The notes below the pieces were generated by a model, which made no database searches, was not told the origin of the DNA, and saw only the letters and a list, made by a program, of their open reading frames with translations. The position numbers and the translations under genes are program-made. Source: Caproiciproducens faecalis (GTDB taxonomy: Bacteria; Bacillota; Clostridia; Oscillospirales; Acutalibacteraceae). From it: a DNA stretch of 64,000 nt. Location of the stretch: the NCBI RefSeq assembly GCF_019448085.1, contig NZ_JAGFNZ010000001.1, positions 620,001 through 684,000 of the forward strand. The letters are read 5' to 3'. Of this stretch, positions 1 through 42,225 are shown piece by piece (position 1 is the first letter of the stretch; each line of letters opens with the position of its first letter).

Positions 1-916
<916 letters not shown>

Positions 917-949: not shown

Positions 950-1042
950 TTATTTTCTGTTACAACGGCAGGAGGCGCACATTCGCTCATGCAGAAAGAG
1001 GGGACGGTTCTGGTTGTTTAAACGGTACTTTTTTGTTTTCAT
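950..1042 (-). CDS. Cys-rich leader peptide ORF (30 aa) upstream of metY
   Basis: ATG at 1042 is preceded by GGAGGAG at ideal spacing and the 30-codon frame closes with TAA at 950. The peptide begins MKTKKYRLNNQNR, continues PLFLHERM and ends CASCRCNRK, so three cysteines fall within six residues near the end. It lies alone between the promoter at 1102-1130 and metY, about 60 bp from the metY start. A Cys codon cluster at the end of a leader in front of a sulfur-assimilation gene suggests cysteine-responsive translational control. No T-tailed terminator lies between leader and metY, so a translation-coupling mechanism is more likely than transcription attenuation. The function is inferred; a small metal- or thiol-binding peptide is possible. 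Confidence 0.6.
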   Translation of the reverse strand: MKTKKYRLNNQNRPLFLHERMCASCRCNRK

Positions 1043-1101
1043 AGGGCTCCTCCTTTTTGTTAATATTACAATACATATAATATTAGTAATATATTGTTGA
1101 C

Positions 1102-1130
1102 ATAGTACTACGATAAAGAAGAAATGTCAA
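1102..1130 (-). promoter_or_regulatory. Sigma-A promoter of leader-metY, with possible operator
   Basis: On the minus strand TTGACA (1125-1130) and TACTAT (1102-1107) are 17 bp apart. Just downstream is a 7-bp inverted repeat, atattac at 1063-1069 and gtaatat at 1086-1092, in a very AT-rich stretch. It lies near the transcription start and could be a repressor site. The rest of 890-1199 holds the leader ORF and the rlmI terminator. Confidence 0.75.
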
Positions 1131-1141
1131 GAGCTTTTCTT

Positions 1142-1189
1142 AAAAAGCGACCCGGAGCACAGGCATAAAAATTTCTGCGCTCCGGGTCG
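1142..1189 (-). terminator. Rho-independent terminator after rlmI
   Basis: The 11-bp arms cgacccggagc (1148-1158) and gctccgggtcg (1179-1189) are followed on the minus strand by a T-tract (1142-1146). It closes the ldh-rlmI unit. Confidence 0.85.
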
Positions 1190-42008: not shown

Positions 42009-42095
42009 CGGAGAAGAAGGGATTTGAACCCTTGCGCCAGTTACCCGACCTACTCCCTTAGCAGGGGAGCCCCTTCACCACTTGGGTACTTCTCC
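42009..42095 (-). tRNA. tRNA-Ser (GCU anticodon)
   Basis: On the minus strand the 5' arm GGAGAAG pairs CTTCTCC at the 3' end; the anticodon loop reads CTGCTAA, giving GCT. A long variable arm (GTAGGTCGGGTAACTGGC) and the T-loop GGTTCAAATCC identify a class II serine tRNA. CCA is encoded (42006-42008). Confidence 0.95.
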
Positions 42096-42139
42096 TTATT
42101 GGTGAAAACAAAGCAAAATATGAAGTTTCTTTTAATTGG

Positions 42140-42225
42140 CGGAGAGGAAGAGATTCGAACTCTTGGTCCCTTGCGGGATCACTAGTTTTCAAGACTAGCT
42201 CCTTAAACCACTCGGACACCTCTCC
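42140..42225 (-). tRNA. tRNA-Ser (UGA anticodon)
   Basis: On the minus strand the acceptor arm is GGAGAGG/CCTCTCC, the anticodon loop reads CTTGAAA (TGA), the variable arm is long (GATCCCGCAAGGGACC) and the T-loop reads AGTTCGAATCT. CCA is encoded (42137-42139). It lies 44 bp upstream of the tRNA-Ser(GCU) gene in the direction of transcription. Confidence 0.95.

What the first reader, a model, noticed from the sequence alone, without database searches (positions are those of the whole stretch)
950..1130. Cys-rich leader ORF in front of O-acetylhomoserine sulfhydrylase: candidate cysteine-sensing leader
Seen: a near-consensus promoter, then a 30-codon ORF with an excellent ribosome binding site whose last ten residues hold three Cys (CASCRCNRK), ending 60 bp before a sulfur-assimilation gene. 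Known: ribosome stalling at rare-amino-acid codons in leader peptides controls biosynthetic genes, and cysteine leaders are described in Actinobacteria. Inferred: stalling at the Cys codons alters metY translation. No intrinsic terminator is visible between them; a small hairpin (cgggtaattcccg, 934-946) and a palindrome (tatttcgaaata, 921-932) could control the metY start.
Basis: partly seen in the sequence, partly recalled or inferred. Interest (0 to 1): 0.75.

Follow-up and report, generated by a model that had tools for sequence, protein, structure and literature searches.

The report
Sulfur-gene leader peptide with R-M stop
A tiny gene in front of a homocysteine-making enzyme gene belongs to a widespread and apparently undescribed family of leader peptides in Clostridia; a ribosome pausing at its fixed Arg-Met codons is predicted to uncover the start of the enzyme gene, so that the cell makes more of it when sulfur amino acids run short.

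Summary
In detail: on the - strand a promoter, a 30-codon ORF (1042-950) and metY (start 889). The ORF is not isolated. Equivalents stand before metY in six of six readable genus relatives and at least 59 of 92 family metY loci, and before metY, MetN, MetQ/NlpA and SsuA/C-like transporter genes across class Clostridia (176 distinct leaders). What is conserved is not the cysteines but L-[LIV]-R-x-N-[FY]-R-x-G-R-M, usually with 16 codons before the Arg. That Arg is always CGA (59/59, 55/55, 77/77), although other conserved Arg use all six codons. After Met comes a cysteine-rich tail (about 3/4, frame-specific) or a stop, usually UGA (about 1/4). Leader sequence just around Arg-Met pairs with the downstream gene's ribosome-binding site: in the window 13 bp, -19 kcal/mol. 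A ribosome modelled at Arg-Met frees that site (mean -2.9 versus -0.5 kcal/mol for swapped cores, p about 1e-16). Best reading: translational attenuation in which a pause at CGA-AUG(-UGY) during Met/Cys shortage switches metY on. Cysteine-only sensing is not supported. Sign and sensed molecule are inferred; up to three relatives with terminators predict the opposite sign. No Pfam, NCBIfam, Rfam or literature match was found.

The parts
1102..1130 (-). sigma-70-type promoter TTGACA-17-TACTAT
   Evidence: sequence; similar TTGACA promoters before genus and family leaders
1080..1092 (-). ATATTACTAATAT palindrome near the transcription start, conserved in the genus; possible operator
1049..1054 (-). 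Shine-Dalgarno AGGAGG of the leader ORF
950..1042 (-). leader ORF, 30 codons, MKTKKYRLNNQNRPLFLHERMCASCRCNRK
988..1000 (-). anti-SD segment CTCTTTCTGCATG in the leader codons just before CGA
   Evidence: 13 bp with 910-898, -19.0 kcal/mol; helix in the MFE and mostly in the centroid fold
980..985 (-). invariant CGA-AUG (Arg-Met), predicted pause site
953..979 (-). cysteine-rich tail CASCRCNRK; 975-968 (CCTCCTGC) can also pair with the leader SD or the metY SD
898..910 (-). metY SD region TATGCAGAAGGAG, sequestered by 1000-988
2..889 (-). metY, O-acetylhomoserine sulfhydrylase (first 296 codons in the window)
   Evidence: NCBIfam best hit homocysteine synthase PRK08248, E 1e-144

Best explanation
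The ORF is a regulatory leader peptide of a clostridial sulfur-amino-acid family. By default the leader mRNA just around the Arg-Met codons pairs with the metY ribosome-binding site and keeps metY translation low. When charged Met-tRNA (AUG) or, in leaders with a cysteine tail, charged Cys-tRNA (UGY) is scarce, the ribosome pauses with CGA or AUG in its P site, helped by the slow CGA codon and the conserved nascent chain RxNFRxGRM. Its footprint melts the anti-SD helix, the metY SD is freed, and homocysteine synthase is made. Shown by comparison: family, peptide-level selection, CGA invariance, cysteine tail, target genes, matched anti-SD. Shown in silico only: opening of the SD by a ribosome at RM. 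Inferred: that the ribosome stalls there, that Met/Cys shortage is the signal, and that the outcome is ON.
For: Conserved leader in 6/6 genus and at least 59/92 family metY loci. Synonymous variation at R(-7), R(-3), L and G against CGA in every leader at R0, while CGA is 4.4% of Arg codons in the window. Targets metY, MetN, NlpA/MetQ, SsuA/C-like. In-frame-only Cys enrichment, absent past the stop of RM* leaders. Complementarity to the own downstream SD peaks only at -16..0 and +4..+24 around CGA against GC-matched swaps. Modelled footprint relief is greatest at P site 0..+6, -2.9 against -0.5 kcal/mol for swapped cores, Wilcoxon p 1.3e-16. Window: 13-bp anti-SD; cost of opening the metY SD 10.1 kcal/mol with a ribosome initiating on the leader, 3.0 with one at RM; 10-14 bp helices in all six genus relatives. 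CGA gives strong stalling in the Salmonella his leader (PMC4046918).
Against: No expression or stalling data. Eight leaders carry intrinsic terminators (0.6 expected); in L198 and L281, and weakly in L341, a ribosome at RM would favour the terminator, the opposite sign. Only 31% of leaders have an own anti-SD stronger than 95% of swaps, so some may work otherwise. Covariation inside the genus alone is not significant. A pure starvation sensor does not explain why the upstream residues R.NFR.G are conserved.
Confidence: 0.62

Rival explanations
1. Classic cysteine-starvation attenuation: stalling at the Cys codons alone controls metY.
For: Strong in-frame Cys enrichment in tails; MetY and the linked transporters serve sulfur supply.
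Against: 41 of 176 leaders stop right after Met and others have no Cys at that codon; the invariant part is upstream of the Cys codons; G004 keeps a single Cys in its tail.
Confidence: 0.18
2. Ligand-sensing arrest peptide (TnaC-like): the chain RxNFRxGRM binds a sulfur metabolite (Met, Cys or SAM) and arrests in sulfur excess, giving repression in terminator-type leaders.
For: Peptide-level conservation of 8-10 residues next to the peptidyl transferase centre and UGA preferred to UAA right after Met; terminator leaders L198 and L281 give stall = OFF. TnaC arrests at its UGA (PMC8429421).
Against: In most leaders the anti-SD geometry makes a stall activating, the wrong sign for arrest in excess; no ligand known.
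Confidence: 0.14
3. Control is purely transcriptional (operator at the promoter); the ORF is a bystander.
For: An ACCTA-N9-TAGGT inverted repeat overlaps -35 in 19 of 155 leaders and a palindrome follows the window promoter.
Against: Does not explain peptide, codon and anti-SD conservation.
Confidence: 0.04
4. The ORF makes a small cysteine-rich protein acting in trans, for example metal binding.
For: ORF with a strong SD, conserved and Cys-rich in most members.
Against: RM-stop forms lack the cysteines; the tail varies; nearly always next to sulfur genes and matched to their SD.
Confidence: 0.02

Closest known systems
erm/cat-type translational attenuation leaders
   Same: A short leader ORF; a stalled ribosome opens a hairpin that hides the downstream SD
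   Different: Those respond to antibiotics; here sulfur genes, an invariant CGA-AUG and a clade-wide conserved peptide
TnaC tryptophan-sensing arrest peptide (PMC8429421)
   Same: Short leader with conserved residues near the peptidyl transferase centre, UGA after the last residue in about a quarter
   Different: No sequence similarity seen; TnaC uses Rho; ligand unknown here
Mycobacterial polycysteine leaderless uORFs, cysteine-responsive attenuators (Canestrari 2020, cited in PMC13236596)
   Same: Cys codons in a short ORF before the controlled genes
   Different: Those are leaderless and cysteine-defined; here SD-led, RM-defined, and Cys can be absent
his/trp/leu amino-acid attenuator leaders
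   Same: Codons for the end-product amino acid placed where a pause changes RNA pairing
   Different: Mostly no terminator here; the nascent sequence and the codon CGA are conserved
SAM riboswitches / T-boxes (usual control of metY and met transporters in Firmicutes)
   Same: Same target genes
   Different: No Rfam match in these leaders

Membership tests
translational attenuation leader (erm/cat-like) | translated short ORF upstream with its own SD | tested here: met
   conserved in frame with SD; translation itself not measured
translational attenuation leader (erm/cat-like) | downstream SD sequestered by leader RNA | tested here: met
   in silico
translational attenuation leader (erm/cat-like) | stalled ribosome footprint opens the SD | tested here: met
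   in silico
translational attenuation leader (erm/cat-like) | experimentally inducible stall | not testable with these tools
   needs toeprinting or profiling
TnaC-type arrest peptide | conserved nascent-chain residues | tested here: met
   codon analysis
TnaC-type arrest peptide | free ligand sensed in the tunnel | not testable with these tools
   no experiment
cysteine-responsive polycysteine uORF | Cys codons always present | tested here: not met
   RM-stop leaders
cysteine-responsive polycysteine uORF | leaderless translation | tested here: not met
   SD AGGAGG in the window, about 50 nt of 5' UTR
transcription attenuator with intrinsic terminator | terminator between leader ORF and gene | tested here: not met
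   none in the window; 8 of 170 relatives
SAM riboswitch / T-box | Rfam covariance match | tested here: not met
known small-protein family | Pfam or NCBIfam match | tested here: not met

The most novel reading that the evidence does not exclude
A class-wide leader-peptide sensor of sulfur amino acids in Clostridia that stands in for riboswitches and T-boxes, in which a specific codon (CGA, probably read by an inosine tRNA) plus a nascent motif RxNFRxGRM forms a new kind of programmed arrest, coupled to a sliding set of anti-SD elements.
Probability: 0.4. Interest if true: 0.85.

Novelty: new variant of a known kind. Interest (0 to 1): 0.74.

Why it matters
Homocysteine synthesis and methionine uptake in many gut Clostridia (Oscillospiraceae/Ruminococcaceae and relatives) appear to be controlled by an undescribed leader peptide rather than by the riboswitches and T-boxes expected there. 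An Arg codon invariant in every one of the 176 leaders found makes a codon-specific arrest directly testable, and the conserved ten-residue motif is a compact new candidate arrest peptide.

Tried and rejected
Rfam scans of the window, of 20 leader loci and of 20 loci first scored as lacking the leader: no riboswitch or T-box. Own-genome search for other copies of the operator palindrome: only the window site is exact. The first pairing idea, post-RM sequence with the leader's own SD, is strong in some loci but not significant overall (z -1.5). The simple swapped-partner test for pairing with the gene SD was not specific, because the upstream-coding control also scored z -10.5; it was replaced by the GC-matched position scan and core swaps. 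Phylum-wide search outside the class: four weak hits, none next to metY, taken as chance. Class hits L358 and L359 (AGG codon, no sulfur gene) and pattern hits L228 and L255 were excluded as chance. Genus-only covariation not significant. Literature searches for the peptide motif and for related leaders found no description.

Full report
Observation. On the - strand a promoter TTGACA-17-TACTAT is followed by a strong SD and a 30-codon ORF, MKTKKYRLNNQNRPLFLHERMCASCRCNRK (1042-950), then 60 nt to metY (start 889; NCBIfam homocysteine synthase, E 1e-144). There is no terminator between them and no Rfam match.

Conservation in the genus. Of 11 genus genomes, 7 carry the orthologous metY; six have readable upstream DNA and all six have the leader, with invariant core L..RMC. 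The more distant MetY paralogues (about 50% identity) show no such leader in the upstream DNA printed.

Conservation beyond the genus. In the family, 59 of 92 metY upstream regions have an in-frame CGAATGT leader; in 38 of them the start codon lies exactly 48 nt before CGA. Five more appear when the base after ATG is left free. A 40-peptide profile finds 63 of 295 genomes of the order at E 0.05 (best 3e-11) and 33 of 341 of the class at E 0.01. In a phylum-wide sample of 349 genomes only four weak hits lie outside the class, none next to metY, which also sets the chance rate at about 1% of genomes at E 0.01. A DNA pattern in GTDB genomes gave at least 80 loci, mostly Oscillospiraceae, Ruminococcaceae and Lachnospiraceae MAGs, plus Christensenella and Erysipelatoclostridium records. 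Downstream genes are mostly metY; the others include MetN (ABC plus NIL domains), NlpA/MetQ lipoproteins (one fused to a polar-amino-acid SBP), an NMT1-type SBP and a BPD permease of the sulfonate type. This looks like a sulfur-amino-acid regulon.

What is under selection. Consensus M...F..L[LIV]RxN[FY]RxGRM. The Arg at -3 and -7 use all six codons and Gly all four, so the upstream part is selected as peptide. The Arg before Met is CGA in 59/59 (family; DNA pattern, with a check for other Arg codons), 55/55 (found by peptide profile, all Arg codons allowed) and 77/77 (pattern, CGA fixed by the search); the other conserved Arg show CGA in 6-14%, and in the window CGA is 4.4% of Arg codons. One doubtful family locus (L110, no NFRxG) has CGG. 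The codon after Met is UGC/UGU in most, UGA in about a quarter, and UGG, UAC, UAA, CAA, CGC, CUC or others rarely. In open tails Cys is 27.5% of the next five codons in frame against 2.8% and 1.6% in the other frames, and 4.9% past the stop in RM-stop leaders: the cysteines are selected as translated codons, but they are optional.

RNA mechanism. Sixteen-nt windows of each leader were tested for pairing with its own gene's initiation region against GC-matched foreign ones. Only two places stand out, -16..0 and +4..+24 relative to CGA (-1.2 and -1.5 kcal/mol, 5-6 standard errors), both inside or at the edge of the footprint of a ribosome at Arg-Met. Masking a 30-nt footprint along the leader lowers the cost of opening the downstream SD most when the P site is at 0 to +6 (mean -2.9 kcal/mol, 54% of leaders by 2 or more); with cores swapped from GC-matched leaders it is -0.5 (Wilcoxon p 1.3e-16). 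In the window 1000-988 (CTCTTTCTGCATG) pairs with 910-898 (TATGCAGAAGGAG), 13 bp, -19.0 kcal/mol, and the helix is in the MFE structure and, nearly whole, in the centroid. All six genus members have such a helix (-14 to -22 kcal/mol); one shows a two-sided change (C-G to U-A) and 91% of cells pair, but six close sequences cannot prove covariation. In the window the SD costs 10.1 kcal/mol to open while a ribosome initiates on the leader and 3.0 with a ribosome at Arg-Met.

Interpretation. A ribosome pausing at CGA-AUG, or at the following UGY, frees metY. For a biosynthetic and uptake regulon this is the sign expected of Met or Cys starvation. AUG is common to all leaders, UGY to most, which suggests sensing of Met, with Cys added in most. 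CGA is a slow codon when placed in the Salmonella his leader (PMC4046918), and the conserved nascent chain suggests an arrest-prone peptide. The stall itself, its trigger and its effect are inferred.

Against. Eight of 170 leaders have intrinsic terminators (0.6 expected). In L198 and L281, and less clearly in L341, the post-RM sequence is the antiterminator arm, so a ribosome at RM would terminate transcription. This opposite sign is unexplained and leaves room for an arrest in sulfur excess in those lineages.

Novelty. No Pfam, NCBIfam or Rfam family and no text match in the open library. Translational attenuation and arrest leaders are known kinds; this family, its codon constraint and its targets appear not to have been described, within the limits of an open-access library.

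Noticed in passing
L106, L115, L118, L121, L122 and others; 19 of 155 leaders: An inverted repeat ACCTA-N9-TAGGT overlaps the -35 box of these promoters (0 expected in shuffles), sometimes with a second copy after -10: probably the operator of an unidentified repressor of the same regulon.
   Followed up: partly
window 1080-1092 (-): ATATTACTAATAT palindrome after the promoter, kept in the genus as TATTACTAAT..GATATG; the only exact site in the whole genome.
   Followed up: partly
L198, L202, L218, L281, L350: Clear intrinsic terminators between the leader ORF and metN or metY, with a matching antiterminator arm right after the RM codons in L198 and L281.
   Followed up: partly
L273 (record titled Treponema MAG): A full leader MKFFFEKLVRENFRNGRMCLCC stands before a URO-D-type (corrinoid methyltransferase-like) gene: gene transfer or misbinned contig.
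   Followed up: no
L259: A polar-amino-acid SBP (SBP_bac_3) fused to an NlpA/MetQ lipoprotein in one protein behind this leader.
   Followed up: no
window 1143-1186 (-): Terminator-like hairpin CGACCCGGAGC..GCTCCGGGTCG plus T-run closes the upstream methyltransferase-like gene just before the metY promoter.
   Followed up: no
window 42009-42225 (-): Two tRNA genes in tandem, the only Rfam hits of the window.
   Followed up: no
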